This document shows, piece after piece, positions 9,480-55,618 of a DNA stretch of 64,000 bases. Positions within the stretch are counted from its first letter, which is position 1; each line of letters starts with the position of its first letter. A model generated the notes under the pieces. That model saw only the letters and a list, made by a program, of their open reading frames with translations. It did not search any database and had not been told where the DNA came from. The position numbers and the translations under genes were made by a program. Origin of the DNA: Acidiphilium multivorum AIU301. Lineage in GTDB: Bacteria > Pseudomonadota > Alphaproteobacteria > Acetobacterales > Acetobacteraceae. The DNA is taken from NCBI RefSeq assembly GCF_000202835.1, contig NC_015178.1, positions 124,001 through 188,000 on the forward strand, read 5' to 3'.

Positions 9480-11098
9480 CCTGAATTATGCACGAGGGTT
9501 GGCAGGCATGGCGTAAGCCGTTGATTTGATGTAAGAATTGGGTGTCGAGACCAAATCTTCATCAGCACGGAACGCGATGCCCGCCACGGTTGAAACTACC
9601 CCATGCCTCCCCGGTCTGTCACCTGTCGCCGGCAAACCGGTGCTGGCCCGCTTCGACGGCGAGATGCTGTCCTCTGACGGCGGTCTGCTGGCATTGCGCG
9701 AGGTCGAGAAGCGGCTGGGGATTGCCGCGCAGTTGGCGGCCTGCATCGATGATCCGCGCACGCCGGAGCGTGTCCAGCATGGGCTCGACGAGATCATTCG
9801 GTTTCGCATGTTGATGATCGCGGCCGGTTACGAGGATGGCAACGACGCCGACCGGTTGCGCAACGACCCGATGTTCAAACTCGCGATGGAGCGTCTGCCC
9901 GAGGCGGGCGATTTATGCTCGCAAGCGACGATTTCACGCACCGAGAATTTGCCCGGGCCTCGCGCGCTGCTGCGCATGGGCCTGGCGATGGTCGAGCATT
10001 ATTGCGCGAGTTTTCGCACCATACCCAACCGGGTCGTGCTCGATATCGACGATACCTTCGATGCCGCTCACGGCGCGCAGCAACTCTGCTTGTTCAACGC
10101 ACACCACGATGAGTACGGTTTCCAGCCGATTGTGGTATTCGACGGCGACGGCCGGATGCTCGCCGCGGTGCTGCGTCCGGCGTGTCGGCCAAAAGGGGCC
10201 CAGATCGTCAAATGGTTGCGCCGGCTGATCGACGCCATTCGCAGCCACTGGCCCCGCACCGCGATCATGCTGCGCGGTGATTCGCACTACTGCACGCCGG
10301 AGGTGCTGCGGTTCTGTCGGGCGCGTCGCCTCGATTACATCTTCGGCGTCGCACCGACCACGACGCTGCGCAAGCACGTCATCGCGCTGGAGGCCAGCAC
10401 CACGGCGCGCGCGCAACAAGCTCCGGGAGAGAAAATCCGGCGCTTCAAAGAGTTCAATGATGGCGCAGCAAGCTGGGACCGCGTCGAGCGGATCATCGCC
10501 CGCGTCGAGGCCGGGCCGCTGGGGGTCGATACCCGCTTCATCGTCACCAGCCTGAAGGCTGGTTCCCCGCGCACCCTGTATCAAGAGATCTACTGCGCGC
10601 GCGGCCAGGCCGAGAACCATATCAAGGCGTGGAAGACCCATCTTGCCGCCGACCGGACCTCGTGCTCGCGGGCCAGCGCCAACCAGATGCGCCTGTTTCT
10701 GCATATCGGCGCCTACTGGCTGATGTGGAGTTTGCGCTCCCTGATGCCGCGCCGGTCGCGCTGGCGTGGTATCCAGTTCGATACCCTGCGCCTGCGCCTG
10801 ATCAAACTCGCCGTCCGCCTCGAAACCCTGAAACGCTCGATCCGCCTGCATCTGCCGCGCTCAATGCCAGACCAGGCAATCCTCGGCTACGCCCTGGCCA
10901 GACTGCCCAGGCTGGTCATCTGATCACTGGGGCGTTTGCCCCGTCCGGTCCCGATCTCTGCCACATCCAACGCCAACACATCATAGAGCCTACCAAAACC
11001 AGCCAGGTTCGGCCGGTAAGCCGTCACGCCCGCACGATGTCAGGTTGAACAGCACGCCTGAGAAAAATCAGAGGAAATGCGCTCGTGAATAATCCCGG
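9480..11098 (+). mobile_element. IS1380-family insertion sequence, copy A (1619 bp)
   Basis: The boundaries come from comparison with copy B (12631-14249), which encodes an identical transposase. Imperfect terminal inverted repeats start CCTGAATTATGCACGAG on the left and CCGGGATTATTCACGAG on the right. A 4-bp target duplication CTAT is at 9476-9479 and 11099-11102. The insertion lies between the divergent catabolic operon (first ATG 9451) and the LacI-type regulator (ATG 11210). Confidence 0.93.
9538..10923 (+). CDS. IS1380-family transposase
   Basis: 461 aa; a shorter start at MPATVETT (9577) is possible. Typical IS1380 DDE features: FDGEMLSSDGGLLALRE near the N-terminus, DIDDTFDAAHG, ILRGDSHYC and a C-terminal QAENHIKAWK region holding the catalytic Glu. 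It is intact and identical to the copy at 12689-14074, so both insertions look recent and potentially active. Confidence 0.93.
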   Translation: MGVETKSSSARNAMPATVETTPCLPGLSPVAGKPVLARFDGEMLSSDGGLLALREVEKRLGIAAQLAACIDDPRTPERVQHGLDEIIRFRMLMIAAGYEDGNDADRLRNDPMFKLAMERLPEAGDLCSQATISRTENLPGPRALLRMGLAMVEHYCASFRTIPNRVVLDIDDTFDAAHGAQQLCLFNAHHDEYGFQPIVVFDGDGRMLAAVLRPACRPKGAQIVKWLRRLIDAIRSHWPRTAIMLRGDSHYCTPEVLRFCRARRLDYIFGVAPTTTLRKHVIALEASTTARAQQAPGEKIRRFKEFNDGAASWDRVERIIARVEAGPLGVDTRFIVTSLKAGSPRTLYQEIYCARGQAENHIKAWKTHLAADRTSCSRASANQMRLFLHIGAYWLMWSLRSLMPRRSRWRGIQFDTLRLRLIKLAVRLETLKRSIRLHLPRSMPDQAILGYALARLPRLVI

Positions 11099-11209: not shown

Positions 11210-12223
11210 ATGGAACGGCGCAAAATCCGTATTGGGCTTGAAGATGTGGCGCAGCGCGCCGGCGTCGGGATTGCAACCGTCGACCGTGTGTTGAACGAGC
11301 GAGGAGGCGTTTCCGCCAAGGCCGAACAGCGCGTTCTCGAAGCCGCGAGGGCATTGGGACTTCGCCGCCAACTCCCTACACCCCATGCGCGGTCATTGCG
11401 CATCGAAGTCATCCTCGCACGCCCGACAACGCCCTTCATGAAGCGTTTGGGGATGGCCGTTGGCCAAGTTGCCGCAACTCTCGATCGATCCATTTCCATT
11501 CTGCGCACGAGCATCGACATGACCGATCCGTCGCGCGTCGCGCCTCGGATCAGAAGTTCGCGCGCTGACGGCATCATCATCTATTGCGAGGAGCAGCTTG
11601 AGAATATCGCGGCCATTCACGCCGCCACCACGGTTAGGCGTCCAGTGATCTGCGTCGTGACCGATGTGCCAGATTCACCACGCATCGCCTATGTCGGCAT
11701 CGATCATGGAAAAGCCGGACGCACGGCAGGATTCTTCGCAGCGCGCATGGGGCGCCAGCATGGCACCGCGCTCATTATCTCGACCAGCACGGGTTTTCGA
11801 GCCCATAAGCAGCGCATCGAGGGATTTCGTGATGCGCTCAACCTGCACGCGCCCGGCATCAAGATCGCGCCCGTGATGACAACGAACGACGAGGCCGAAC
11901 GCGCCTATCATTGCGTCATGCGGGCAATGCGCGACTGGTCTGACCTCGTGGCAATCTACAATACCGGCGGCGGCAATGAAGGGGTGGGTCACGCGCTGCA
12001 CGACGGTAAGCATGGCGATCCGGTCATTTTTATTGGCCACGAATTGACCGAAGAGAGCATTGGATTACTACGAGACGGCGTCATGACTCTCACCATTGAC
12101 CAAGCACCGGAATTGCAAGCGCGCTGCGCCATCGACCTCATGCTCAGCCATCTCGGCCGTGGTACGGACCAAGCAATGAGCAGCGAAATCGCTTTCAGCC
12201 TGCATACGATGGAGAATTGTTGA
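11210..12223 (+). CDS. LacI-family transcriptional regulator
   Basis: 337 aa. The N-terminal HTH is IGLEDVAQRAGVGIATVDRVLNE with the following hinge. The periplasmic-binding-protein-like effector domain runs from about residue 65 to the end. The TVDRVLN wording and the NTGGGNEGV segment resemble LacI-type regulators linked to rhizopine/inositol-like ligands. It is divergent from the catabolic operon, so it is the likely ligand-responsive controller. No nearby transporter is visible. Confidence 0.88.
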   Translation: MERRKIRIGLEDVAQRAGVGIATVDRVLNERGGVSAKAEQRVLEAARALGLRRQLPTPHARSLRIEVILARPTTPFMKRLGMAVGQVAATLDRSISILRTSIDMTDPSRVAPRIRSSRADGIIIYCEEQLENIAAIHAATTVRRPVICVVTDVPDSPRIAYVGIDHGKAGRTAGFFAARMGRQHGTALIISTSTGFRAHKQRIEGFRDALNLHAPGIKIAPVMTTNDEAERAYHCVMRAMRDWSDLVAIYNTGGGNEGVGHALHDGKHGDPVIFIGHELTEESIGLLRDGVMTLTIDQAPELQARCAIDLMLSHLGRGTDQAMSSEIAFSLHTMENC

Positions 12224-12630: not shown

Positions 12631-14249
12631 CCTGAATTATGCACGAGGGTTGGCAGGCATGGCGTAAGCCGTTGATTTGATGTAAGAATTGGGTGTCGAG
12701 ACCAAATCTTCATCAGCACGGAACGCGATGCCCGCCACGGTTGAAACTACCCCATGCCTCCCCGGTCTGTCACCTGTCGCCGGCAAACCGGTGCTGGCCC
12801 GCTTCGACGGCGAGATGCTGTCCTCTGACGGCGGTCTGCTGGCATTGCGCGAGGTCGAGAAGCGGCTGGGGATTGCCGCGCAGTTGGCGGCCTGCATCGA
12901 TGATCCGCGCACGCCGGAGCGTGTCCAGCATGGGCTCGACGAGATCATTCGGTTTCGCATGTTGATGATCGCGGCCGGTTACGAGGATGGCAACGACGCC
13001 GACCGGTTGCGCAACGACCCGATGTTCAAACTCGCGATGGAGCGTCTGCCCGAGGCGGGCGATTTATGCTCGCAAGCGACGATTTCACGCACCGAGAATT
13101 TGCCCGGGCCTCGCGCGCTGCTGCGCATGGGCCTGGCGATGGTCGAGCATTATTGCGCGAGTTTTCGCACCATACCCAACCGGGTCGTGCTCGATATCGA
13201 CGATACCTTCGATGCCGCTCACGGCGCGCAGCAACTCTGCTTGTTCAACGCACACCACGATGAGTACGGTTTCCAGCCGATTGTGGTATTCGACGGCGAC
13301 GGCCGGATGCTCGCCGCGGTGCTGCGTCCGGCGTGTCGGCCAAAAGGGGCCCAGATCGTCAAATGGTTGCGCCGGCTGATCGACGCCATTCGCAGCCACT
13401 GGCCCCGCACCGCGATCATGCTGCGCGGTGATTCGCACTACTGCACGCCGGAGGTGCTGCGGTTCTGTCGGGCGCGTCGCCTCGATTACATCTTCGGCGT
13501 CGCACCGACCACGACGCTGCGCAAGCACGTCATCGCGCTGGAGGCCAGCACCACGGCGCGCGCGCAACAAGCTCCGGGAGAGAAAATCCGGCGCTTCAAA
13601 GAGTTCAATGATGGCGCAGCAAGCTGGGACCGCGTCGAGCGGATCATCGCCCGCGTCGAGGCCGGGCCGCTGGGGGTCGATACCCGCTTCATCGTCACCA
13701 GCCTGAAGGCTGGTTCCCCGCGCACCCTGTATCAAGAGATCTACTGCGCGCGCGGCCAGGCCGAGAACCATATCAAGGCGTGGAAGACCCATCTTGCCGC
13801 CGACCGGACCTCGTGCTCGCGGGCCAGCGCCAACCAGATGCGCCTGTTTCTGCATATCGGCGCCTACTGGCTGATGTGGAGTTTGCGCTCCCTGATGCCG
13901 CGCCGGTCGCGCTGGCGTGGTATCCAGTTCGATACCCTGCGCCTGCGCCTGATCAAACTCGCCGTCCGCCTCGAAACCCTGAAACGCTCGATCCGCCTGC
14001 ATCTGCCGCGCTCAATGCCAGACCAGGCAATCCTCGGCTACGCCCTGGCCAGACTGCCCAGGCTGGTCATCTGATCACTGGGGCGTTTGCCCCGTCCGGT
14101 CCCGATCTCTGCCACATCCAACGCCAACACATCATAGAGCCTACCAAAACCAGCCAGGTTCGGCCGGTAAGCCGTCACGCCCGCACGATGTCAGGTTGAA
14201 CAGCACGCCTGAGAAAAATCAGAGGAAATGCGCTCGTGAATAATCCCGG
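12631..14249 (+). mobile_element. IS1380-family insertion sequence, copy B (1619 bp)
   Basis: Same ends and same transposase as copy A. It has its own 4-bp target duplication, CTAG, at 12627-12630 and 14250-14253. The separate duplications show independent insertion, not two halves of a composite transposon. It lies in the metallo-beta-lactamase remnant. Confidence 0.93.
12689..14074 (+). CDS. IS1380-family transposase (second copy)
   Basis: 461 aa, identical to the protein at 9538-10923, with the same FDGEMLSSDGG, DIDDTF and RGDSHYC motifs. It is intact. Two identical direct copies 3151 bp apart allow recombination that would delete the LacI-type regulator. Confidence 0.93.
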   Translation: MGVETKSSSARNAMPATVETTPCLPGLSPVAGKPVLARFDGEMLSSDGGLLALREVEKRLGIAAQLAACIDDPRTPERVQHGLDEIIRFRMLMIAAGYEDGNDADRLRNDPMFKLAMERLPEAGDLCSQATISRTENLPGPRALLRMGLAMVEHYCASFRTIPNRVVLDIDDTFDAAHGAQQLCLFNAHHDEYGFQPIVVFDGDGRMLAAVLRPACRPKGAQIVKWLRRLIDAIRSHWPRTAIMLRGDSHYCTPEVLRFCRARRLDYIFGVAPTTTLRKHVIALEASTTARAQQAPGEKIRRFKEFNDGAASWDRVERIIARVEAGPLGVDTRFIVTSLKAGSPRTLYQEIYCARGQAENHIKAWKTHLAADRTSCSRASANQMRLFLHIGAYWLMWSLRSLMPRRSRWRGIQFDTLRLRLIKLAVRLETLKRSIRLHLPRSMPDQAILGYALARLPRLVI

Positions 14250-22547: not shown

Positions 22548-23673
22548 GGACACGCCCGACCGCCCTTATGGGCCGATACGTCACACCAACGCGGCGCCGT
22601 CGCCGGTTGAACAGGAACAATCTGCGGTCGCCAGCCAGCAGCGCCTCAGCGGGCGCCAGATCGGCGGCATTCTTCTGGCCTGCGCGCTCGGCGCTGGCGT
22701 CGTGCTCGTGGTGACCCGGCTCACCGCACATCATGAGCCAAAGCTCGCCCATAAGGCCGCCGTGACAGGCGGGACCGAGGGCCGGCCATTCGTCAACAAT
22801 GCCAGCAGCGGCACGACGCCTTCCTCGAAACCTGCCGGACTCCCCCTGCCGCCAAAGCAGAACGCGGGGTTTCACAATCCGTTCCTGACGAATCAGCAGG
22901 AATCCCCAGCCATGAAGGCGCTCAAGGCACCGATCATGGCGTTCAACCAAACTGGCGGTGGATCATCCGCGCAACCTGCCAGCAATACCGTGGGCCAGAA
23001 TGGCGCTCCCTCCGCGGGATCTGCGAAACCTACGGCCTTCGCGAACAAGCTCGATGCGGATCAATTCAGTGCGGCCGATGCCTCGATGATCGCGCATCCG
23101 AATTTCACGATCGCGGCCGGCACCATCATTCCCTGCACGCTGCAAACCGCGATCAATTCGACCCTGCCGGGCTTCGTCAAATGCGTGTTGCCGCAGCCGG
23201 TGCGCTCGATGACTGGCACGGTGACGTTGCTGGATAAGGGGACGCAGGTGCTGGGCGAGGTTCGCGAGGGCCTGGTGCAAGGCCAGGACCGACTTTTCAT
23301 CCTCTGGGACCGCGCGGTGACACCGCAAAACGTCGCTATTCAGCTCGCCTCGCCGGCGGCCGATCCCCTCGGCCGGGCTGGCGTCTCGGGGGCCGTCAAC
23401 AACCATTTCCTCGAACGGTTCGGCGCGGCGATCATGATGACGATCATCGGCGGCTCGTTGCAGGTCGCGGCGAACGCCGCCCAGAACAGCGCCGGCAACA
23501 CGTATCTGGAATATATGAACTCCAGCACAAACCAGATCGCCAACACCACACTGCAACACACGATCGACATTCCGCCCACACTGACCAAGCACCAGGGCGA
23601 GAATGTCTCGATCTTCGTTGCCCGCGATCTGAATTTCTCCAAGGTCTATAAGCTGTCGGTTGTCTCGCCATGA
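22537..23673 (+). CDS. virB10: VirB10
   Basis: 378 aa. Cytoplasmic N-terminus, transmembrane helix (IGGILLACALGAGVVLVV), Pro/Ser-rich linker, and the C-terminal TrbI/VirB10 barrel with AGTIIPCTLQTAINSTLPGFVKC and DKGTQVLGEV. It spans both membranes in the core complex. It overlaps both neighbours. Confidence 0.93.
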   Translation: MANEDTPDRPYGPIRHTNAAPSPVEQEQSAVASQQRLSGRQIGGILLACALGAGVVLVVTRLTAHHEPKLAHKAAVTGGTEGRPFVNNASSGTTPSSKPAGLPLPPKQNAGFHNPFLTNQQESPAMKALKAPIMAFNQTGGGSSAQPASNTVGQNGAPSAGSAKPTAFANKLDADQFSAADASMIAHPNFTIAAGTIIPCTLQTAINSTLPGFVKCVLPQPVRSMTGTVTLLDKGTQVLGEVREGLVQGQDRLFILWDRAVTPQNVAIQLASPAADPLGRAGVSGAVNNHFLERFGAAIMMTIIGGSLQVAANAAQNSAGNTYLEYMNSSTNQIANTTLQHTIDIPPTLTKHQGENVSIFVARDLNFSKVYKLSVVSP

Positions 23674-23960
23674 GGGAGGGCTGGCGCACCCGCCTGGATC
23701 GCCTGACGCAGGCAGGGCAGCGGCTCAATCGCCATGTCGAAAAGACCGTCGTCAAATACGTTGAATGGCAAGATCGTCGCCACGCGCGCCGGCGGCAGAA
23801 ATTTCTCAGGCAAGGCTGGCTCTACAGCACGCTTCTAGGGCTGTGGCTCGTCCTGATCATCTTGGAATTGCTCGGCCATCAATCAGCCGCGGTCATCCAT
23901 AGCTCGGCCGGCCTCGGCCTGATCTTCCTGGCTCTTAAACTGAAGTTTTCACTGGTTTGA
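23670..23960 (+). CDS. Unknown single-pass membrane protein, C-terminus altered by an IS1634-type insertion
   Basis: Now 96 aa. Basic N-terminal region (residues 1-45), a hydrophobic helix (YSTLLGLWLVLIILELLG) and a second weaker one. The last codons (LKFSLV) come from the IS. Removing the IS with one CTTAAA copy (23670-23939 joined to 27250-27300) restores a 106-aa protein ending IWHSAMVIRAKKRGEL. Its TGA then overlaps the virB11 start as ATGA. I recognise no family. The slot between virB10 and virB11 suggests a transfer accessory. Confidence 0.6.
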   Translation: MREGWRTRLDRLTQAGQRLNRHVEKTVVKYVEWQDRRHARRRQKFLRQGWLYSTLLGLWLVLIILELLGHQSAAVIHSSAGLGLIFLALKLKFSLV

Positions 23961-24010
23961 ATGCAAACTCCCCGCATTTATCGACAACGTTTCTGATCAG
24001 GTTTTGACGG

Positions 24011-25744
24011 TTACTGGACACGCATGGGGTCGATCCCGATCAGGGCGAAGGCGGCGGTTTGCAGCGGCGTGGGGTTTGCCAGGGTGGTGAAGGTGGCGTT
24101 CGGGGCCTTGGGCAGGGCCGCGGTGTTCAGGGTCTGGGTGGCAAGATGCGCCATCAGGTCGGCGAAGCTTGAAATCGGCAGGTTCTGGTCGTTGCGGCGT
24201 CGCCCGCGCTTGCGATCGGCGGCCGGGGATGTCGATGCGGGGGCAACCGGCGATAAGCGTTCGGTCTCAGCTCCCGGGCGGTCGTGATCCTGGAACAGTA
24301 GGGGCTTGAGGGCGTCGCGCAGATGCCACTCGACGTAATAGGCCATCATGCAGAGAAAGACGTGGGCACGCACCCGCGGTGAGAGCCAGTGATGCACCGG
24401 GCGGATCGCGAGATCGACCGATTTGAGGGTCCGGAACGCCCGTTCCACCCGCGAAAGGTCCTTGTAGGCTGACACGGCTTCGGTCTCGCTCATGACGTCC
24501 GCGCTCACACTGGTGCGGATGACATAGATGCCGTCGAGGGCCGCCTCGCGCGCGATGCTGGCGGCGTTGCGCTGGAAATCGAAGCGGCTGGCGGTGATGG
24601 TGAGATCGAAATGCTTGGCCATCTTGCGCTGGTTGATCACCGCCCCCACCGCCAGCCCGATCGCGGCCTCGCCATGAAGAGGAGCGCGTTTGCGCCGTGT
24701 CGCATCCCGGATCCGCGCCAGTTCCGTCTCGGTGGCCACGAGCAGCGCCTCGCGCTTGCGCCGTCGTTCGGTCGCAAGGGCCGCGTTGCGACAGGCGATC
24801 AGCCGCTCGCCCGGATAATCGGGCGACGTGATCGCGGCGATATCGCGCTCGTCGAACAGCGACATCTGCAGCGGTCCCTCGGCAAGATCCTGGATCTGCC
24901 CCGCGCGCAGGCAGCTGATCCAGTCCAGCCCCGCCGGCTTGATCGTCTCGCGGATCCGCGCCGTGGTGATCATCCCGCGATCACCCACCAGGACGACGCG
25001 CTCGAGATGGAACCGCCGCTTGAGTTTCTCCACCTGCGCGGCGATCGTCGCCGGATCGGCGGTGTTGCCTTCGAACACTTCCACCGCGATCGGCCGCCCC
25101 TCGCGATCGCACAGCAGGCCATAGACGATCTGTGGCCGATCGGGCCGGTGATCGCGGCTGTATCCGTGGTGTGCCAGTTCGCAATGCCGGCCTTCGAGGT
25201 AGGATGAACTGACGTCGTAGAGCACCAGCGTGCCGTCGCGCAGATGGCGCCTTGCAAACTGCCGCTCGATCCGGCCCTGCTGCGCGCCCAGCCAGTCCAG
25301 TGCGGCGTAGATCTCGCGCTCTTCAATGGCGCCGAGTTCGAGGATCTCGCCGAGACTCGATGTCGCGGTCTGCGGGTTCAGACCGCGCAGGGTCGAGAGC
25401 TTCGAGCCCGGTGCGATCACCCGACCCGCGATCAGCGCCAGGGCAAGATCGCGCTCACGCGACGCCCTCCGGCCCAGCAGGCCGGGAATCTCAAGCTTGC
25501 GCATCATCCCGAGTGCCGCCGCCACATGACCGTGCGGCAGCGAGCGCCGGATCTCGAGTGCCTGATCGGCACCACCGACCACCGCGCCACCCGCGAGAAG
25601 CGCACGCAGCCCATCGATCAGCTCCGGCGGCATCTGGCTCAGATTGGCGATGGTGCGTTTATGAACCTTGCGACCCTCGCGGAAACTCTCCCGCAACAGC
25701 ACGGCCGGCGCCGATCGGCCATTCGGAACCACGTCAATGAACAT
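24011..25744 (-). CDS. IS1634-family transposase
   Basis: 577 aa. DDE residues: Asp in LYDVSSSYLEG, Asp in VLVGDRGMI and Glu in LSRVERAFRTLKS near the C-terminus, as in IS1634 (IS4 superfamily). The coding frame is intact, but the IS1111-type element lies only 10 bp upstream of the ATG, so its native promoter is displaced. Confidence 0.9.
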   Translation of the reverse strand: MFIDVVPNGRSAPAVLLRESFREGRKVHKRTIANLSQMPPELIDGLRALLAGGAVVGGADQALEIRRSLPHGHVAAALGMMRKLEIPGLLGRRASRERDLALALIAGRVIAPGSKLSTLRGLNPQTATSSLGEILELGAIEEREIYAALDWLGAQQGRIERQFARRHLRDGTLVLYDVSSSYLEGRHCELAHHGYSRDHRPDRPQIVYGLLCDREGRPIAVEVFEGNTADPATIAAQVEKLKRRFHLERVVLVGDRGMITTARIRETIKPAGLDWISCLRAGQIQDLAEGPLQMSLFDERDIAAITSPDYPGERLIACRNAALATERRRKREALLVATETELARIRDATRRKRAPLHGEAAIGLAVGAVINQRKMAKHFDLTITASRFDFQRNAASIAREAALDGIYVIRTSVSADVMSETEAVSAYKDLSRVERAFRTLKSVDLAIRPVHHWLSPRVRAHVFLCMMAYYVEWHLRDALKPLLFQDHDRPGAETERLSPVAPASTSPAADRKRGRRRNDQNLPISSFADLMAHLATQTLNTAALPKAPNATFTTLANPTPLQTAAFALIGIDPMRVQ

Positions 25745-25771
25745 GGAGGCAGGGAACGTATGGCCCGCCCC

Positions 25772-26017
25772 GTCCGCAAGGGGTGATTTTCATCTGGCTC
25801 TAATCAGTCTGCTTCAACGTATCCGGTCTCGGGCTTCGAACCCGGCCAAGATGGAGATCCGCGCGGCCTGATCCTCATAATCACACCGGCCTCGGAGGCC
25901 GTTCACTGCGTCAGGTTTTCAAGCCGCCGTTCGACTGTCAGGCCATCTTCCTTTCACCTCACGCAGACATCGACTGCCCTTTCGCGCCCAACTGTGAGCG
26001 CTGTTCGGGCGATTCCG
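25772..26017 (-). ncRNA. Candidate bridge RNA of IS1111-type element A
   Basis: Noncoding region at the recombinase 3' side, where IS1111-type elements encode their bridge RNA. It shares blocks with the equivalent region of element B (TCAACGTATCCGG and GGCCAAGATGGAGATCC). Between these blocks is a stem whose sequence differs but still pairs (A: GGGCTTCGAACCC; B: GGAGCAAGCTCC). CATAATCACA at 25876-25885 repeats the element's right junction (27125-27134). The strand is assumed from the recombinase direction. Confidence 0.6.
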
Positions 26018-27058
26018 TCATGCGGCCGCAGCCGCCGCTTCGAATTGGGCGTCGTAATCGCAACCGTGCGCCAAAACGGCCCATGCAATCCGAGCCAGCT
26101 TCGCGGCCAGCGCGACTACGACCACGTTCTTATGCGCTCGATCGAGCAATCCCCGCGCCCAGCGGCCCAACGGCGTATCGCGTTCGACAAGATAAGGCAG
26201 CGCCGCTCGTGCGCCATGGATCAAGTTCTTCCGCAAATAACGATTGCCGCGTTTGCTGATGCCGAGCAGGCGCGGTTTTCCACCCGTTGTCATTTGCCGT
26301 GGAACGAGCCCCAGCCACGCCGCCATGTCCCGCCCACGTTTGAATGCATGCGCCTCGCCGACCGCCGCCGCCAGCGCCGTAGCGTTTATCGTTCCAATTC
26401 CTGGGATTTTGGTCAAACGTCGCACAGCCACGTCGTCACGAGCCAACTGAACGAACTCGGCGTCGAAGCCGGTGATCCTCTGGTCGAGTGAACGCCATTC
26501 CGCCCGAAGATCTTCGATCAACGTCCGGATGCGCGGGCTCAACGCGGCAAAACCGCCATCTTCGGCCAATGTCTCAAGCTCGGCTTCCAGTTTCCTCCGG
26601 CCTTGCGGAACGACGATCCCTCGCTCCAGCAGCAACGCCCGCAAGTGATTGATCAGCGCCGTCCGTTCCGAGACGAGGCGCTCCCGGGCTCGGTGCAAAG
26701 CCTGGAGATCAGATTGGTCCTGGCTCTTCACAGGCACGAAACGCATCGTTGGCCGCGTCGCAGCCTCTGCGATCGCCTCCGCGTCGAGATCATCGTTCTT
26801 CTGCGCCTTCACGTACGGACGGACATATTCCGGCGACATCAGCCGCACCTCGTGGCCCCGCGCGGCGAAAATCCGCCCGAGGTGATGAGCGCCGCAACAT
26901 GCTTCCATTGCCACAATGCACGACCCAAGCTCGCCAACGAAACTTTCCAACGTTCCCCGCCGAAGTCTCCGCCTCAAAACAACCCGGCCGGCGGCGTCCA
27001 TGCCCACCACGCTGCAAGAGTTCTTCCCAAGATCGATGCCGAGAATCATGATATCCAT
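26018..27058 (-). CDS. IS110-family recombinase (IS1111 group)
   Basis: 346 aa (a start at MILGIDLG, 27049, is also possible). RuvC-like DEDD acidic residues: GIDLGKNS, VAMEACCGAHH, NDDLDAEAIAEA. The C-terminal Tnp_20 domain has IPGIGTINATAL and the serine-bearing GISKRGNRYLR. It catalyses RNA-guided strand exchange together with its noncoding RNA. Confidence 0.93.
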   Translation of the reverse strand: MDIMILGIDLGKNSCSVVGMDAAGRVVLRRRLRRGTLESFVGELGSCIVAMEACCGAHHLGRIFAARGHEVRLMSPEYVRPYVKAQKNDDLDAEAIAEAATRPTMRFVPVKSQDQSDLQALHRARERLVSERTALINHLRALLLERGIVVPQGRRKLEAELETLAEDGGFAALSPRIRTLIEDLRAEWRSLDQRITGFDAEFVQLARDDVAVRRLTKIPGIGTINATALAAAVGEAHAFKRGRDMAAWLGLVPRQMTTGGKPRLLGISKRGNRYLRKNLIHGARAALPYLVERDTPLGRWARGLLDRAHKNVVVVALAAKLARIAWAVLAHGCDYDAQFEAAAAAA

Positions 27059-27296
27059 CGGTCTGCTCCTCTCTCCAAACCAGCGGCGATCCTACCAGAT
27101 CGCCACGAGAGGGGCGGGCCATCCCATAATCACATACCGAGACGCGCCGCAAGCCCCATGTATGGACACAAACAGAATACAGAAAAACAGCGCTACGCAA
27201 GGAAATCCGCCATGTTCAGGTTATTCTGAAGTAAAAACTTCAGCTTAAAATCTGGCACTCGGCCATGGTCATCAGGGCTAAAAAGCGGGGGGAATT

Positions 27297-28364
27297 ATGA
27301 ACGGCACCGATTTTTCCGATGACCTCGTGGCGGAAAGCCCGGCCGCGCCGCTGCTCCGCTTCCTGCTCGCCCCGCTGCAACCCTGGCTGAACGATGGGGC
27401 CACTGAGGAGCTGTGCATCAACCGGCCCGGCGAGTGCTGGGTGCGCCAGCGCGGCGTTTTTGAGCGGTTCAAGGTGCCCCTCGATCGCTCGGCGCTGGAG
27501 GATATTGCCGTGCTCGCCGGCGCGCTGCGCCGTCAGGATGTCGGCCCTACCTCGCCGCTTTGCTCCACCGAACTGCCAGGCGGCGAACGGCTGCAAATCT
27601 GCCTGCCGCCGGCCGTGCCCACCGGTACGGTCAGCCTGACAATCCGCCGGCCGGGCTCGACGGTCGCGCCGCTCTCCTCCGTCACCTCCAGGTATCAGTC
27701 GGACGGATGGAACAGTTGGGCGGAAAACCGGGACACCCGGAATTTCGCGGAAGCCCTGGACTACTACGATTCCGGCGATCTTGAGGGCTTCCTTGCGGCG
27801 GCCGTGCGCTGCCGCATGACCATCCTGCTCTGTGGCGCCACCGGCTCCGGCAAAACCACGATGAGCAAAACGCTGATCTCGGCGATCCCCATGGCAGAGC
27901 GGATCATCACGATCGAGGACACGGCGGAGCTTGTGATCCCGCAACCGAATCATGTCCGGCTGCTCTACTCGAAAGACGGCCTCTCCACCGCGAAAATCGA
28001 CGCCGAGGCGCTGCTGCAGGCCAGCCTGCGCATGCGGCCAGATCGGGTGCTCCTGCAAGAGCTCCGCGACGATGCGGCATGGACCTATGTGAACGAGGTG
28101 GTTTCCGGGCATCCGGGCTCGATCACCACCATTCACGGCGCCAACCCGGCCCAGGCGTTCAAGAAGCTGTTTTCGCTCATCAAGGGATCCCCGAAGGGCG
28201 CTAGCTTCGATGACGCCACGCTTTGCGATCTGCTTGCGGCGGCTGTCGATCTCATCATCCCGTTCGAGACTTCCGGCACCACCTACCGGATCGGCAAGGT
28301 CTGGTTTGGCCCGGACGCGACCAGGCGCGGCGAAACAGCCGCCGCCCTCTTGCGGGCCGCCTGA
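27297..28364 (+). CDS. virB11: VirB11 ATPase
   Basis: 355 aa. Walker A GATGSGKTTM at about residues 180-189, Asp box TIEDTAEL, Walker B region RPDRVLLQELRDDAAW and the His box GHPGSITTIHG. Hexameric secretion ATPase. Its ATG would overlap the stop of the preceding gene in the uninterrupted operon, and it still overlaps virD4 (TGATG). Confidence 0.93.
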   Translation: MNGTDFSDDLVAESPAAPLLRFLLAPLQPWLNDGATEELCINRPGECWVRQRGVFERFKVPLDRSALEDIAVLAGALRRQDVGPTSPLCSTELPGGERLQICLPPAVPTGTVSLTIRRPGSTVAPLSSVTSRYQSDGWNSWAENRDTRNFAEALDYYDSGDLEGFLAAAVRCRMTILLCGATGSGKTTMSKTLISAIPMAERIITIEDTAELVIPQPNHVRLLYSKDGLSTAKIDAEALLQASLRMRPDRVLLQELRDDAAWTYVNEVVSGHPGSITTIHGANPAQAFKKLFSLIKGSPKGASFDDATLCDLLAAAVDLIIPFETSGTTYRIGKVWFGPDATRRGETAAALLRAA

Positions 28365-30184
28365 TGACCTGGCGCGGCGTGATGCGGCTCCTCGTTGGGC
28401 TGGTGCTCGGCCTGGTGTTCTTCTCCGTCCTCGCCACGATGATCTTCCTCATTGGAACCGGACTGTTCTGGCATTTCCGGCATCCGTTCTGGCAATGGTG
28501 GCTCTATCTTTTCGAGGCCAGCGGAGATCCTACTGTACGGGTCTGGCTGGTCATCAGCGGCGTGCCGGCCTTCGCGATCCCCTTCCTCGCCGGGGTCGTT
28601 CAGCTTGTGCGCGGCCGGCGCGTCACCGGCTGGTCACTGCGCCGCGATCACGCCCCGACAAAGCCCGTCGATGCGCCGATCCGTGCCCCAACCGACAACC
28701 ATGGTCATGCCCGCTGGATGACGATGGAGGAGGCCCGCGCCAGGTTCCCGGGGCCAGCCCCGGAATATGGCGGGCTTGTCGTGGGCGAAGCGTATGAGGT
28801 TCACCGCGACAGCGTTGCCAGTATGCCGTTCAGGCCGAAGGATCGTTCAACCTGGGGGCAGGGGGGCAAGGCGCCCCTGCTGATCGATCCATGCGAGATT
28901 GGCTCGACCCATTGCATGATGTTCGCCGGATCGGGCGGCTACAAGACGACGACGGCCGTCTCCACGCTGCTGACATGGACCGGCTCGGCCATTGTCCTTG
29001 ACCCCTCGGTGGAGCTGGGGCCGATGTTGCGCCAGGCGCGTGAGGACATGGGCCACAAGGTCTATATGCTCGATCCCCGCACGGCCCGCGAAGTCGGGTT
29101 CAATGTGCTCGACTGGGTCGATGTCTCCTCCCCCCTCGCGGAAATCGATGTTCAGGCCGTGGTTGAGTGGGTTTGCGGCGATACCAAAGCAGGCGGCGAT
29201 GAAAACGCCTCCTTCTTCAAGAACAGCGGCAAGGAGCTGGTGACGGCGCTGCTCGCGCATATGCTCTGGGACGAACACCTGGAACCGCACGAAAAGACCT
29301 TGCGCGCCGTCCGCGCGGCCATCGTTACGCCCGAAAAGGAGCTGCGGAACGTCTTGGCCCATATTCACAAGAACTCGCAAAGCCGCCTCGCCCGCGATCT
29401 GGCCGGTAGCTTGAAGGACATTGTGGATGAGACCTTTAGCGGCATCTACAAGAACGCCACCCAGGACACGGCCTGGCTTTCAACCGCCGCCTATGCGGAT
29501 CTCGTCTCCGGCAATGCGTTCCGTTGCGCTGAGCTGACGCTCGGCAAGACCACGGTTTTCATCAACATTCCCCTCAAGGCGCTCGATGCCACCCCGGCCG
29601 TCGCCCGCGTCATCACCGGCGCGCTGCTGAACGCGGCCTATGAAGCGGATGGCGTGATCGAAGGCCGCGTGTTGTTCCTGCTCGATGAGGCCGCCCGGCT
29701 TGGCCCCATGAAAATCCTCGAAACCGCCCGCGACTGCGCCCGGAAATACAAGATCACGCTGTTTCCGTTTTATCAGTCGATCGGCCAGCTTCGCGAGCTG
29801 TTCGGCCAGAACGGCCCGGCCAAGTGGTTTGAATCGGTCAGCTGGTATGGCTTCGCCGGCGTCAAAACCAAGGCCGTTGCCGAGGAGCTGGCTGCGGCGA
29901 TCGGCGAATATGGCGTGCTGGCCTGGTCGGAAGGCTCGAACACCGGCAACTCGGCAAAGGGCCTGGAAGCAGGCACGCGCTCGACCGGCCAGACCAAAAC
30001 CTATCATGAGCTGAAACGCCAACTCATCCGGGCCGAGGAAATCATGCACGACATGAGGGATGATGAGCAGATCATCTTCCCAAAATCCGGCCGGCCGCTG
30101 CGCTGCGGCCGGGCCATTTATTTTCGGCGGCCTGAGATGGCCGCACGTGTGGGCGAGAACCGCTTTGCCGTCAACGCAACTTAA
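28364..30184 (+). CDS. virD4: VirD4/TraG coupling protein
   Basis: 606 aa from ATG 28364, chosen because it overlaps the virB11 stop and begins just before the membrane anchor (MTWRGVMRLLVGLVLGLVFF and a second helix). Walker A-like AGSGGYKTTTAV at about 187-198; Walker B VLFLLDEAARLG at about 436-447. It delivers the relaxase-DNA complex to the secretion channel. Confidence 0.93.
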   Translation: MTWRGVMRLLVGLVLGLVFFSVLATMIFLIGTGLFWHFRHPFWQWWLYLFEASGDPTVRVWLVISGVPAFAIPFLAGVVQLVRGRRVTGWSLRRDHAPTKPVDAPIRAPTDNHGHARWMTMEEARARFPGPAPEYGGLVVGEAYEVHRDSVASMPFRPKDRSTWGQGGKAPLLIDPCEIGSTHCMMFAGSGGYKTTTAVSTLLTWTGSAIVLDPSVELGPMLRQAREDMGHKVYMLDPRTAREVGFNVLDWVDVSSPLAEIDVQAVVEWVCGDTKAGGDENASFFKNSGKELVTALLAHMLWDEHLEPHEKTLRAVRAAIVTPEKELRNVLAHIHKNSQSRLARDLAGSLKDIVDETFSGIYKNATQDTAWLSTAAYADLVSGNAFRCAELTLGKTTVFINIPLKALDATPAVARVITGALLNAAYEADGVIEGRVLFLLDEAARLGPMKILETARDCARKYKITLFPFYQSIGQLRELFGQNGPAKWFESVSWYGFAGVKTKAVAEELAAAIGEYGVLAWSEGSNTGNSAKGLEAGTRSTGQTKTYHELKRQLIRAEEIMHDMRDDEQIIFPKSGRPLRCGRAIYFRRPEMAARVGENRFAVNAT

Positions 30185-37734: not shown

Positions 37735-38814
37735 CTTGCCTATCCGGTTGTTACCCACACCCACTAAATGTAGGGTGTGTCCATTCCCCGGAATAAAGCT
37801 CGTCAAAGGTTGGTGCGGCTGCCCTACCCGCGATTCCGAGCAGCGAGCGGAACGCGTTGAAGGGATAGAGGCGCCGGTTGAACCGAAACGTGAATTCATT
37901 GAGGTAGGCTTGTAGATGTTTGGCGCTGACCCCGTGATGGATGCCGTTGATCCAGGTCTTCAGGTTGGTAAAGACCAAGTGGACGATCGGCAGGAATTCT
38001 TCTGCCACCTCCGGGTCGCCGCATTCGGCGATTGCATGGTGGTCGAACCCGCGCCTTCCGAGACCGGCATAGCCGCTCCAGTCGTCGGTAACGATCAGCG
38101 ATCCGGGAGCAACGGCGTTTTCGACGAATCCGCAGAGCGAATTGGCGCTACGGTCGGGGACAACAGCGAGACGAACGCGTCCCGCGTAGCGACCGTCTTT
38201 CCGATTGTCGAGCTTGGTTCCCGGTTTCCGGTGGCGCACCTCCACGGCACAGGCGACGAGAACCTTGTGATGGACACCCCGTCCATCGCCTCGGGTTCGT
38301 CCTCCAACCCACGTTTCATCCACTTCGACGTGTTCTTGCGGCGTGTCGCCAATCTTGTCGCGCTCGGGGCGCACCATCCCGGCGCGCAGCTTATGAAGGA
38401 TGCCGAAGGCGGTCTCGTAGCGCGACAGGCCGAGTTGCCGCTGAAATTGGACGGCCGACATTCCGGGCGTCTGGCTGGCGATCAAGTAAGCCGCCCAGAA
38501 CCAAGTCGACAGCGGCGTGTGACTGCGTTCCATAACGGTCCCAGCCATCAGGCTTACGTCTTTGCGACAGGCCCGGCAGCGCAGAACGCCCGGGCGCGCC
38601 TCGAAACGGAACGGCTCGCCAACGACGCCGCACCTTGGGCAGGCGAACCCTCCATTCCAGCGGGCGCTTTCGAGATAGGCGGCACAGGCCGCGTCGTTCG
38701 GGAAAATACGCTGGAATTCCGGCAGAGACTGCGGGAACGGCAGGTCTTCACGGGCCAGGACATCCATGCCCAACACTAGATCTAGTAGGTATGGGAGTCA
38801 ACCGGATAGGCAAG
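37735..38814 (-). mobile_element. IS1595-family element, copy A (1080 bp)
   Basis: Perfect terminal inverted repeats CTTGCCTATCCGGTTG and an 8-bp target duplication GAACGTTC at 37727-37734 and 38815-38822. It is identical to the copy at 39067-40146. The insertion point is in the ribosome-binding region of PEP-CTERM gene 1; an AAGGA is kept because the IS ends in CAAG. Confidence 0.93.
37751..38776 (-). CDS. IS1595-family transposase
   Basis: 341 aa (start at MDVLARED, 38767, also possible). N-terminal zinc ribbon CPRCG...CRAC, then an ISXO2-like DDE domain: VDETWVGGRTRG, VTDDWSGYAGL and a C-terminal NGIHHGVSAKHLQAYLNEF block. Intact. Confidence 0.92.
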   Translation of the reverse strand: MLGMDVLAREDLPFPQSLPEFQRIFPNDAACAAYLESARWNGGFACPRCGVVGEPFRFEARPGVLRCRACRKDVSLMAGTVMERSHTPLSTWFWAAYLIASQTPGMSAVQFQRQLGLSRYETAFGILHKLRAGMVRPERDKIGDTPQEHVEVDETWVGGRTRGDGRGVHHKVLVACAVEVRHRKPGTKLDNRKDGRYAGRVRLAVVPDRSANSLCGFVENAVAPGSLIVTDDWSGYAGLGRRGFDHHAIAECGDPEVAEEFLPIVHLVFTNLKTWINGIHHGVSAKHLQAYLNEFTFRFNRRLYPFNAFRSLLGIAGRAAAPTFDELYSGEWTHPTFSGCG

Positions 38815-39066: not shown

Positions 39067-40146
39067 CTTGCCTATCCGGTTGTTACCCACACCCACTAAA
39101 TGTAGGGTGTGTCCATTCCCCGGAATAAAGCTCGTCAAAGGTTGGTGCGGCTGCCCTACCCGCGATTCCGAGCAGCGAGCGGAACGCGTTGAAGGGATAG
39201 AGGCGCCGGTTGAACCGAAACGTGAATTCATTGAGGTAGGCTTGTAGATGTTTGGCGCTGACCCCGTGATGGATGCCGTTGATCCAGGTCTTCAGGTTGG
39301 TAAAGACCAAGTGGACGATCGGCAGGAATTCTTCTGCCACCTCCGGGTCGCCGCATTCGGCGATTGCATGGTGGTCGAACCCGCGCCTTCCGAGACCGGC
39401 ATAGCCGCTCCAGTCGTCGGTAACGATCAGCGATCCGGGAGCAACGGCGTTTTCGACGAATCCGCAGAGCGAATTGGCGCTACGGTCGGGGACAACAGCG
39501 AGACGAACGCGTCCCGCGTAGCGACCGTCTTTCCGATTGTCGAGCTTGGTTCCCGGTTTCCGGTGGCGCACCTCCACGGCACAGGCGACGAGAACCTTGT
39601 GATGGACACCCCGTCCATCGCCTCGGGTTCGTCCTCCAACCCACGTTTCATCCACTTCGACGTGTTCTTGCGGCGTGTCGCCAATCTTGTCGCGCTCGGG
39701 GCGCACCATCCCGGCGCGCAGCTTATGAAGGATGCCGAAGGCGGTCTCGTAGCGCGACAGGCCGAGTTGCCGCTGAAATTGGACGGCCGACATTCCGGGC
39801 GTCTGGCTGGCGATCAAGTAAGCCGCCCAGAACCAAGTCGACAGCGGCGTGTGACTGCGTTCCATAACGGTCCCAGCCATCAGGCTTACGTCTTTGCGAC
39901 AGGCCCGGCAGCGCAGAACGCCCGGGCGCGCCTCGAAACGGAACGGCTCGCCAACGACGCCGCACCTTGGGCAGGCGAACCCTCCATTCCAGCGGGCGCT
40001 TTCGAGATAGGCGGCACAGGCCGCGTCGTTCGGGAAAATACGCTGGAATTCCGGCAGAGACTGCGGGAACGGCAGGTCTTCACGGGCCAGGACATCCATG
40101 CCCAACACTAGATCTAGTAGGTATGGGAGTCAACCGGATAGGCAAG
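39067..40146 (-). mobile_element. IS1595-family element, copy B (1080 bp)
   Basis: Same ends as copy A with its own 8-bp duplication GTTTGAAC at 39059-39066 and 40147-40154. Direct repeat of copy A, 1332 bp away. Confidence 0.93.
39083..40108 (-). CDS. IS1595-family transposase (second copy)
   Basis: 341 aa, identical to the protein at 37751-38776, with the same zinc ribbon and ISXO2-like motifs. Recent duplication by transposition. Confidence 0.92.
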   Translation of the reverse strand: MLGMDVLAREDLPFPQSLPEFQRIFPNDAACAAYLESARWNGGFACPRCGVVGEPFRFEARPGVLRCRACRKDVSLMAGTVMERSHTPLSTWFWAAYLIASQTPGMSAVQFQRQLGLSRYETAFGILHKLRAGMVRPERDKIGDTPQEHVEVDETWVGGRTRGDGRGVHHKVLVACAVEVRHRKPGTKLDNRKDGRYAGRVRLAVVPDRSANSLCGFVENAVAPGSLIVTDDWSGYAGLGRRGFDHHAIAECGDPEVAEEFLPIVHLVFTNLKTWINGIHHGVSAKHLQAYLNEFTFRFNRRLYPFNAFRSLLGIAGRAAAPTFDELYSGEWTHPTFSGCG

Positions 40147-53909: not shown

Positions 53910-53926
53910 AACGTATGGCCCGCCCC

Positions 53927-54165
53927 GTCTGCAAGTGGTATTTTCGATGAACTGACCAGTCTGCGTCAACGTATCCGGCCTCGGAGCAAGCTCCCGGCCA
54001 AGATGGAGATCCGCGCGATCCGGTCCTCATAAAATTCACGGCATCAAGCGCGCCATTTTTTGAAGCAGGTTCCCGAAACGCCGGTCGACTGTCAGGCCAT
54101 CTTCATTCCACCACCCGCAAACATCATGACCGGCTATCAAGTTAGCGAGATCATTAGCCGGCTAA
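53927..54165 (-). ncRNA. Candidate bridge RNA of IS1111-type element B
   Basis: Same place and conserved blocks as in element A, with a compensated stem (GGAGCAAGCTCC). Its variable segment CATAAAATTC (54028-54037) repeats the right junction of this insertion (55285-55294). The strand is assumed from the recombinase direction. Confidence 0.6.
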
Positions 54166-55215
54166 TCATGCCATCCCTGATGCGGACCTGGCATCAAACG
54201 TGCCGCCGTTTCTCAGTACCGCCCAAGCGATCCGCGCCAGCTTGTTGGCCAGTGCGACAACCACTGCATTCTTGTGGACCCGAGCGGTGAGCCCGCGCAG
54301 CCAGCCGCCGAGCGGCGTTGAGCTGGTCAACAGACTGGGAAGAGCGGCGCGAGCACCATGGATCAGCAGCTTGCGCAGATACTTGTTGCCGCGCTTGCTG
54401 ATCCCGACCAGCCGCGGTCGGCCTCCTGTCGTGATCTGCCGCGGCACCAGACCAAGCCAGGCAGCAAGATCGCGGCCCCGGCTGAACGTCTCACCGTTGC
54501 CGATCGCGGCAATCAGCGCGGTCGCGTTCATCACGCCGATCCCGGGAATGCTGATCAGCCGGCGTGCCGCTTCGTCCTCGCGCGTGCGAGCGACAAATTC
54601 GTCCTCAAAAGCGGTGATCCGCCGATCCAGCTCACGCCATTCGGCCCGCATGTCGGCAATCAGCGCCCGCAGCCGCGGCGTCAATGTCGCCGGTGGCTCG
54701 GCTTCATCGCCATCGAACATCTCGATCAGGGACCGCTCGAGCTTGCTCCGCCCCTGCGGCACCGTAACCCCGCGCTCCAACAGGATCGCTCGCAACTGGT
54801 TGATCAGCGCCGTCCGTTCACCGACCAGCCGGTCACGCGCCCGATGCAGGGTCTGCATGTCAAGCTGCTCCTCCGTTTTCATGGACACAAAACGCATCGT
54901 TGGCCGTGTTGCCGCCTCCGCAATCGCCTCGGCATCGCGATCATCGTTCTTCTGCGCCTTCACATAAGGGCGCACGTATTCCGGCGACATCAGCCGGACG
55001 TCGTGTCCCTGCGCCGCGAGAAGACGGGCAAGATGATGAGCGCCGCAGCACGCCTCCATCGCTATCACGCAAGGCGGCAACTCCTTCGTGAACGTCACCA
55101 CGGTCTCCGGTCGCATCCGCCGCCGTTTGATCACCGCACCAGTCCCATCCAGTCCCGCAAGGCTGCAGCTGTTCTTGCCCAGATCAATCCCTAAAACCGC
55201 GATCTCTGTCTTCAT
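54166..55215 (-). CDS. IS110-family recombinase (IS1111 group), second type
   Basis: 349 aa. Acidic residues in VLGIDLGKNS, IAMEACCGAHH and NDDRDAEAIAEA; the C-terminal domain has IPGIGVMNATAL and GISKRGNKYLRKL. It is clearly homologous to the 26018-27058 protein but diverged through its middle (for example EMFDGDEAEPPATL), so it is a sister element, not a copy. Confidence 0.92.
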   Translation of the reverse strand: MKTEIAVLGIDLGKNSCSLAGLDGTGAVIKRRRMRPETVVTFTKELPPCVIAMEACCGAHHLARLLAAQGHDVRLMSPEYVRPYVKAQKNDDRDAEAIAEAATRPTMRFVSMKTEEQLDMQTLHRARDRLVGERTALINQLRAILLERGVTVPQGRSKLERSLIEMFDGDEAEPPATLTPRLRALIADMRAEWRELDRRITAFEDEFVARTREDEAARRLISIPGIGVMNATALIAAIGNGETFSRGRDLAAWLGLVPRQITTGGRPRLVGISKRGNKYLRKLLIHGARAALPSLLTSSTPLGGWLRGLTARVHKNAVVVALANKLARIAWAVLRNGGTFDARSASGMA

Positions 55216-55287
55216 TGCCTGCCTCCCTTTCTTCCGTTGGCCCCCGGCAGATTACTCTACAAGCGGGAAAGGGGCGGGCCATTCCAT

Positions 55288-55618
55288 AAAATTCGTGGTC
55301 CTGCGGGCTGATTTTGCAGCAATCCAACCTGCAGCCGCCGCCTTGCGCGCTGCTCTTGGGGCCGCTACCGCGCTCTGCCGCGCGCCAGATGGAGCACCTT
55401 CACTCGCCCGCCTGCTTGCCGCCCCCGCCCATCTGGACCTGCCGGAAGGTATGGTACGCGACGCGCTCATCCCCCGGACCGGCAATCCGATCTTCATGAC
55501 CGGCGCCTCGCTTCTGCCGGACAAGGCCGACATTGCCTGGACCATCGCGCGGATGGTCGAGGCCGGCCATCTTGATCCTGCAGGAGAAGATCCAAGTCTG
55601 GCCATTATTACACCATAA
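55288..55618 (+). pseudogene. nasS: nasS 3' part
   Basis: Continues the nasS frame (KFVVLRADFAAIQPAAAALR...) to TAA 55616-55618. The segment GNPIFMTGASLLPDKADIAWTIARMVEAGHL fits the C-terminal end of NrtA/NasS-type proteins (FM...W...QMVRWG). It has no start of its own. Confidence 0.82.

What the first reader, a model, noticed from the sequence alone, without database searches (positions are those of the whole stretch)
25755..27134. IS1111-type element A: noncoding segment matches its own insertion flank (bridge-RNA guide signature)
In the noncoding 3' part of element A, CATAATCACA (25876-25885) is identical to the right junction CATAATCACA (27125-27134). CAT is the IS tip shared with element B; AATCACA is flank DNA. 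In the sister element B the equivalent variable segment is different and matches B's different flank. Covariation of guide and target in two independent insertions is what RNA-guided IS110/IS1111 integration predicts. A weaker GGAGGC match links the left flank (25745-25750) to 25894-25899.
Basis: partly seen in the sequence, partly recalled or inferred. Interest (0 to 1): 0.85.

Follow-up and report, generated by a model that had tools for sequence, protein, structure and literature searches.

The report
RNA-guided jumping gene, IS1111 type
This is a mobile DNA element that appears to carry, next to its transposase gene, a short RNA gene whose loops spell out both the DNA site where the element inserts and the element's own ends, a mechanism described in 2024; the element is a new member of that known kind, and its relatives give unusually clean natural evidence for how the RNA reads DNA.

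Summary
Element A is a 1373-bp IS1111-group insertion sequence (25757-27129). CATAATCACA in its 3' noncoding region equals its right junction. Two insertion-free sites show that the AATCACA part is target DNA. All 12 full copies found in the genome keep the loop; 11 sit at TGTGA|TT, one at TGTAA|TT. In 67 non-duplicate relatives (55 distinct guide pairs), the 5 bases before the core in the noncoding region match each element's own left flank: 4.42 of 5 against 1.68 when permuted, 0 of 20,000 permutations. RNA base pairs covary in 55 sequences. A second loop matches the element's own ends, and this too covaries across the wider IS1111 group (own right-end 7-mer in 125 of 139 elements, 0.7% across types). 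The RNA is best read as a two-loop bridge RNA/seekRNA, right guide 5' and left guide 3' in both loops. The mechanism is published; this is a new member. The group-wide donor-loop covariation seems the least documented part. No transcript was measured, and single-sequence folding energy is not exceptional.

The parts
25757..27129 (-). Element A, IS1111-group insertion sequence, 1373 bp (7-bp left and 3-bp right extensions outside the subterminal inverted repeats)
   Evidence: 12 full copies in the genome; ends set from flank comparison, empty sites and the 7/3-bp convention
26018..27058 (-). Transposase, 346 aa, DEDD_Tnp_IS110 + Transposase_20; GLVPRQMTTG fits the GL-P----S(t)G motif
   Evidence: Pfam E 1.5e-20 and 2e-21; motif read from the translation
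25772..26017 (-). 3' noncoding region encoding the predicted bridge RNA/seekRNA; part aligned and modelled 25801-25951
   Evidence: 55-sequence alignment and pair covariation
25881..25885 (-). Left target guide, RNA UGUGA (core UU at 25879-25880; AUG at 25876-25878 equals the left end of the element)
   Evidence: 5 of 5 with the flank at 27130-27134; covariation in relatives
25902..25912 (-). Right target guide, RNA GACGCAGUGAA, complementary to the right target (tnp orientation TTCCCTGCCTC, window 25746-25756)
   Evidence: 9 of 11; covariation in relatives and at one base between copies
25886..25901 (-). [quoted passage not shown]
   Evidence: columns 55-59/68-72 of A2, 100% of cells paired
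25816..25822 (-). Left donor guide, RNA AUACGUU, identical to the right end plus core (25755-25761)
   Evidence: group-wide covariation of this 7-mer
25851..25856 (-). Putative right donor guide, RNA CUCCAU, complementary to ATGG of the left end
   Evidence: covariation at the base after ATG in distant relatives, own 0.79 vs cross 0.42
25760..25771 (+). Subterminal inverted repeat at the right end of the element
   Evidence: 12 of 12 bp identical to the other repeat
27111..27122 (-). Subterminal inverted repeat at the left end of the element
27130..27134 (-). Left target half TGTGA (flank DNA)
   Evidence: empty sites L039 and L169; 11 of 12 copies identical, L012 TGTAA
25746..25756 (-). Right target half with TT core, TTCCCTGCCTC in tnp orientation (flank DNA)
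25774..25779 (-). Proposed -35 (TTGCGG), 17 bp before TTATGG when the ends join in the circle
   Evidence: motif CTTG[CA][AGC] in 52 of 55 elements, at 17 bp in 47 and 16 bp in 5 of those 52; promoter activity not tested
53912..55289 (-). Element B, sister IS1111-group element (1378 bp), left guide GAATT matching its left flank GAATT (55290-55294)

Best explanation
Element A is an IS1111-group insertion sequence whose 3' noncoding region makes a structured guide RNA with two DNA-reading loops. [quoted passage not shown] In the donor loop, a 3' segment (AUACGUU) pairs with the element's own right end plus core, and a 5' segment (CUCCAU) probably pairs with the left end. The DEDD transposase with this RNA would excise the element as a circle and recombine it into the site across a TT core. 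The extra AUG next to the left target guide equals the element's left end and is probably a handshake guide that holds the product junction after strand exchange. Shown here: sequence matches, target identity, guide-flank and guide-end covariation, RNA pair covariation. Inferred: transcription, RNA-protein binding, circle formation, order of strand exchange, promoter at the circle junction.
For: IS110/IS1111 transposase domains. Empty sites with AATCACA and no element. 11 of 12 copies at TGTGA, 1 at TGTAA. Left guide vs own flank in 67 elements: per-position identity 0.75-0.97 at -5..-1 against 0.27-0.44 across elements, and no signal at -6 and -7; 55 distinct guide pairs, 4.42/5 vs 1.68, 0 of 20,000 permutations; better than the nearest relative's guide in 49 of 55, tie 3, worse 3. 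Right guide: 5.27/7 vs 3.35, 0 of 20,000; better in 36, tie 13, worse 6 of 55. Between copies in this genome, the one base that varies in the right guide (C or G) equals the flank base in 10 of 12 copies: G/G in both G-guide copies, C/C in 8 of 10 C-guide copies. RNA structure: 96.4% of 1539 cells paired, 190 cells with changes on both sides against 60.3 in shuffles. Donor loop: own 7-mer in 125 of 139 elements (121 of 135 without exact repeats), 0.7% across types; placed by a pattern that does not use the element's end, in 52 of 58 distant elements, 23 classes, 6.39/7 vs 4.49, 0 of 20,000.
Against: Single-sequence folding is no more stable than shuffles (A z -0.27, B z +0.66). No Rfam family reached its gathering score in 23000-29000. 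Right-guide matches are incomplete (7-9 of 11 in A's own 12 copies, each with its own guide) and many relatives have T-rich right flanks, which raises the background. Some elements fail: in 6 of 55 a neighbour's right guide, and in 3 of 55 a neighbour's left guide, fits better than their own. Fourteen of 139 elements lack their own right-end 7-mer. The right donor guide is weaker (second base 0.53 vs 0.30; 20 classes, first base, 4 of 20,000), and the patterns used to place the donor loop were chosen. No RNA data.
Confidence: 0.93

Rival explanations
1. The transposase itself reads the target, and the noncoding match is a second protein-binding copy of the junction, acting as DNA and not as RNA.
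For: The target and end matches are plain direct repeats at the DNA level; the RNA was not observed; single-sequence folding is unremarkable.
Against: Guides change between relatives and flanks change with them; the target guides lie in a loop bounded by covarying RNA helices and face each other across a conserved hairpin. In relatives studied by others the noncoding region works in trans as RNA (Siddiquee 2024, PMC11187229, passages read).
Confidence: 0.04
2. AATCACA is the element's own tip, so the internal match is only a donor-end repeat and says nothing about the target.
For: All 12 copies share the same right junction apart from one base in one copy, so from copies alone it looks like element DNA.
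Against: Two empty sites contain AATCACA without the element; L012 has AATTACA; relatives have other bases there that match their own guides. The donor-end repeat exists but is a different segment (25816-25822).
Confidence: 0.02
3. Chance, or a relic of a captured target sequence without function.
For: A 10-base match taken alone is short.
Against: 0.03 expected in 64 kb, 3 found; 0 of 20,000 permutations reach the observed match in 55 distinct guide pairs.
Confidence: 0.01

Closest known systems
seekRNA of IS1111 elements (ISEc11, ISKpn4, ISPst6, ISPa11; Siddiquee et al. 2024, PMC11187229)
   Same: 3' noncoding region, subterminal inverted repeats with 7/3-bp extensions, two target-matching segments with the top-strand complement 5' of the bottom-strand match, natural re-direction between close relatives
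   Different: In the parts read (outline and abstract, parts 1-3 of 9, the section 'Many IS, many different targets' and the Discussion) only target matches were named and one natural re-direction was described in detail (ISEc11/ISXne4); here 55 distinct guide pairs among relatives and, in addition, end-matching segments
Bridge RNA of IS621 and IS110-family elements (Durrant et al. 2024, PMC11208160; Hiraizumi et al. 2024, PMC11208158)
   Same: Target loop and donor loop, each with left and right guides around a dinucleotide core; guides covary with DNA; handshake bases
   Different: IS110-group RNA lies mostly upstream of the gene, with the bottom-strand guide 5'; here it is downstream with the order reversed. 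For IS1111 the passages read report structural-model predictions and manual inspection, with three members of each group shown
IS110 family transposase, Acidiphilium cryptum JF-5 plasmid NC_009467.1
   Same: 99.6% identical over the whole 1380-base query, so the element itself is already in the databases
   Different: The listing names only an IS110 family transposase under the match; the record's full annotation was not opened

Membership tests
IS1111 group of insertion sequences | Subterminal inverted repeats, usually 11-13 bp | tested here: met
   12-bp perfect repeat ATGGCCCGCCCC at both ends
IS1111 group of insertion sequences | 7-bp and 3-bp extensions outside the repeats | tested here: met
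   TTATGGG and ACG; consistent with the empty sites, which leave the two core bases assignable to either side
IS1111 group of insertion sequences | DEDD transposase of 330-350 aa with GL-P----S(t)G motif | tested here: met
   346 aa, Pfam hits, GLVPRQMTTG; catalysis not tested
IS1111 group of insertion sequences | Longer noncoding region downstream of the gene | tested here: met
   246 bp between stop codon and right repeat
IS1111 group of insertion sequences | One target sequence, one orientation, no target duplication | tested here: met
   12 of 12 copies in one orientation relative to TGTGA/TGTAA|TT; AATCACA is single in the filled site except for the AA core
IS1111 group of insertion sequences | Circular intermediate with a junction promoter | not testable with these tools
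   Only a -35-like motif 16-17 bp from TTATGG was seen
seekRNA / bridge RNA systems | RNA segments complementary to both strands of the target | tested here: met
   (sequence and covariation)
seekRNA / bridge RNA systems | Donor-binding loop matching the element's own ends | tested here: met
   left donor guide strong, right donor guide moderate
seekRNA / bridge RNA systems | Conserved RNA secondary structure | tested here: met
   single-sequence energy not exceptional
seekRNA / bridge RNA systems | RNA is made and binds the transposase | not testable with these tools
   no expression or binding data
IS110 group proper (IS621-like) | Noncoding RNA region upstream of the gene | tested here: not met
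   it is downstream

The most novel reading that the evidence does not exclude
Across the IS1111 group the noncoding RNA is a complete bridge RNA: besides the target loop it has a donor loop that co-evolves with both ends of the element (7 nt at the right end including the core, and at least the base after ATG at the left end), and in both loops the order of guides is the reverse of IS110. This would unite the target-only seekRNA picture with the bridge RNA picture and make the donor ends of IS1111 elements predictable and programmable.
Probability: 0.8. Interest if true: 0.5.

Novelty: new member of a known kind. Interest (0 to 1): 0.42.

Why it matters
The window gives a two-element natural experiment, and its relatives give dozens more, in which guide and target changed together. 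This supports the 2024 mechanism in a subfamily found here mainly in Alphaproteobacteria, marks which RNA bases read which DNA bases, and supports a donor loop in IS1111 elements, which bears on their use as programmable DNA-insertion tools.

Tried and rejected
The idea that AATCACA is the element's own tip was considered after and rejected with the empty sites. Rfam gave only two sub-threshold hits in 23000-29000. An empty site of copy L001 was sought in plasmids only and not found; for the contexts of L004, L011 and L012 no empty site was sought. L042, a more diverged host-IS copy, also has AATCACA but another left flank and was not used. Single-sequence folding gave no signal. The first guide anchor was one base off; its match counts (Lm6) are discarded and one search replaces them. 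The per-base listing compared some copies in the wrong orientation and is replaced. One search scored all 12 copies with the window's right guide (6-9 of 11); one search uses each copy's own guide (7-9 of 11). CATAATCACA at 49502-49511 is judged a chance match. L055 is counted among the 125 of 139, but its placement is doubtful. Of 8 further close elements, 5 had 5/5 and 1 had 4/5 left-guide matches, 1 had 2/5 (L184, end unclear) and 1 had no anchor; L143, L184 and L187 have junctions already seen in the first set (L094, L076, L129), so they are not new.

Full report
What was checked. The 10-mer is found 3 times in the window, against 0.03 expected; the third copy (49502-49511, minus strand) has no element end in the 401 bases read around it. 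The matching pair in element B, CATAAAATTC, is found exactly twice.

Copies and ends. The genome holds 12 full copies of element A plus fragments, and 2 full copies of element B plus a fragment. The 12 A copies fall into about six site contexts: L001; L002 and L005 (one host sequence); L003 and L006-L010 (copies of another host IS, the one at 24011-25744 in the window); L004; L011; L012. All 12 share AACGT at one end, and 11 of 12 share AATCACA at the other (L012: AATTACA). From copies alone AATCACA could be element DNA. An uninterrupted host IS (L039) reads GGCAGGG-AATCACA-GACCGAG, and an empty copy of the L002/L005 host sequence in another genome of the genus (L169) reads CAGCGTG-AATCACA-GCC. 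So AATCACA is target, with AA as a core present at both ends of the insert. Read in the transposase direction, the target is TGTGA|TT and the element runs from TTATGGG-ATGGCCCGCCCC to GGGGCGGGCCAT-ACG: the subterminal repeats and 7/3-bp extensions that Siddiquee et al. give for IS1111 elements (PMC11187229; I read the outline and abstract, parts 1-3 of 9 of the text, the section 'Many IS, many different targets' and the Discussion). The transposase has both IS110 Pfam domains.

Relatives. A scan of genome contigs with the A+B alignment confirmed 326 relatives and kept the best 80 loci. Subterminal repeats could be parsed in 73 of these 80 (not in L068, L079, L088, L089, L109, L115, L121); with A and B that is 75 elements, 67 after removal of duplicates, with 55 distinct guide pairs. 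The aligned noncoding regions of the 67 have a variable stretch before TTAT (64 of 67) or a near variant of it.

Left target guide. At positions -5 to -1 before the core, guide and own left flank agree in 75-97% of the 67 elements, against 27-44% between elements with different guides; at -6 and -7 there is no difference. For 55 distinct guide pairs the mean is 4.42 of 5 (31 with 5, 18 with 4, 4 with 3, 2 with 2) against 1.68 when flanks are permuted, 0 of 20,000. Against the nearest relative with a different left guide (median gene identity 0.77), the own guide fits better in 49 of 55, equally in 3, worse in 3. In one search the A group was represented by L061, by the window copy. In 58 more distant elements the 10-mer of left flank plus left end finds a better place in the own noncoding region than in others' (8.26 vs 6.69 of 10; above the mean of the others in 56 of 58).

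Right target guide. The bases just 5' of the apical hairpin, reverse-complemented, match the right flank: 5.27 of 7 against 3.35 permuted, 0 of 20,000, with the best of three registers allowed for own and permuted pairs alike; nearest-relative test 36 better, 13 tie, 6 worse of 55. Many right flanks are T-rich, which raises the background. Several matches are long, for example L097 TCCTCTCAA and L099 TTTCCACGC. In the window, TTCACTGCGTC (25902-25912) faces TTCCCTGCCTC (9 of 11). Over A's 12 copies, each scored with its own guide, the match is 7 to 9 of 11. The eighth guide base is C in 10 copies and G in two (L011, L012); the flank base there is C in 8 and T in 2 of the ten, and G in both of the two, so guide and target agree even at a base that varies inside this genome. 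The copies are few and partly share sites, so this is illustrative.

RNA structure. On 55 sequences, RNAalifold gives 32 pairs, 16 of them with compensatory change. A 28-pair structure based on it (six doubtful pairs left out, two GG/CC pairs added) has 96.4% of 1539 cells paired, 190 cells changed on both sides (shuffled 60.3), covariation score 0.389 (shuffled 0.173; slid 0.054-0.080). The structure came from the same alignment, which favours it. Against this, the single sequences of A and B are no more stable than shuffles. Both target guides lie in the unpaired stretches between the outer stem and the apical hairpin.

Donor loop. The noncoding region also holds AUACGUU (25816-25822), identical to the right end plus core. 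Among the 67, right ends other than ATACGTT occur twice: L086 has ATACATT and carries ATACATT in the loop too; L097 (ATACGTC) departs in the core base only and keeps ATACGTT in the loop. To test this more widely I took loci from order, class and phylum searches and earlier ones: of 132 loci, 103 had a match of at least about 250 residues, 79 a subterminal repeat, 72 passed a repeat-start filter; with the 67 above this makes 139, 135 without exact repeats. The own right-end 7-mer is in the noncoding region in 125 of 139 (121 of 135; in the distant elements 44 of 57 without repeats), against 0.7% for other types' 7-mers; L055 among them is doubtful. With the loop placed by a pattern that does not use the element's end (but was chosen), 52 of 58 elements below 60% identity could be placed; per-position identity is 0.87-1.00 (across elements 0.43-0.77 at the five variable positions, about 1 at the other two), and 23 distinct classes give 6.39 of 7 against 4.49 permuted, 0 of 20,000. 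The 5' partner, NNCAT, complements the left end ATGNN: first base 0.79 own against 0.42 across (43 elements; 20 classes 0.70 against 0.32, 4 of 20,000), second base 0.53 against 0.30. The right donor guide is therefore moderate evidence, the left donor guide strong.

Mechanism. The reading that fits is a two-loop guide RNA. The AUG beside the left target guide equals the element's left end, which the target lacks; Hiraizumi et al. (PMC11208158, passages read) describe handshake guides in IS621 that pair with the partner DNA after strand exchange, and this AUG is a likely counterpart (inference; it hardly varies here, so covariation cannot test it). A conserved CTTG[CA][AGC] lies 17 bp (47) or 16 bp (5) before TTATGG if the ends are joined, in the 52 of 55 elements that have it, in line with the junction promoter reported for some family members (PMC11187229); activity is not tested.

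Known or new. Siddiquee et al. showed seekRNA for four IS1111 and one IS110 element, with both target matches in the order seen here, and a natural re-direction. Durrant et al. (PMC11208160; passages and the whole section on diverse IS110s) did large covariation analysis on IS110-group elements, predicted bridge RNAs in 93.0% of ISfinder IS1111s, and inspected by hand six elements, three of each group, for donor and target pairing, noting donor nucleotides in a multiloop in many IS1111s. Searches of the held library for 'seekRNA' (9 papers), for 'IS1111' with 'bridge RNA' (4), and for 'IS1111', 'donor', 'guide RNA' and 'covariation' (3) listed no further paper whose title or abstract start reports donor-loop covariation for the IS1111 group; most subscription papers and preprints are not held, and supplements were not read. 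The element itself is 99.6% identical to one on an Acidiphilium cryptum plasmid. Verdict: a new member of a known kind, with supporting data better than usual.

Noticed in passing
24011-25744, and copies around L003, L006-L010: In 6 of its 12 full copies, element A lies at the same place beside near-identical sequence of another IS (DDE_Tnp_1 transposase in the window copy), 12 bp upstream of that transposase's start codon and in the same direction; in L002 and L005 it also lies just before what looks like a transposase start (not tested). Nested spread, or an effect on host-IS expression, is possible.
   Followed up: partly
25909 in L011 and L012: The two most diverged full copies carry G instead of C in the right target guide, and both sit at targets with G at that base: guide drift with the target inside one genome.
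   Followed up: partly
37751-38776 and 39083-40108: Two IS1595-type (ISXO2-like) transposase ORFs of equal length lie in direct orientation 1332 bp apart, with the same Pfam scores: apparently a tandem duplication.
   Followed up: partly
9486-11048 and 12637-14199: A block of ORFs recurs with identical lengths 3151 bp apart on both sides of a LacI-type regulator (11210-12223); two of the repeated ORFs were scanned and have no Pfam hit, the longest (9538-10923) was not scanned.
   Followed up: no
L097 (Methylocystaceae MAG): The right core is TC instead of TT and the right target guide also reads TC, while the left end and donor loop keep TT: a possible natural core change.
   Followed up: no
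L248, L258, L261: IS1111-group elements with right end ATGTAGC whose donor loop reads ATGTAGA: six of seven bases match and the last core base differs, so their core or end position may be read wrongly or work differently.
   Followed up: no
L239, L241, L087, L263: Noncoding regions of about 380-440 bp instead of about 250 bp before the right repeat; extra content not examined.
   Followed up: no
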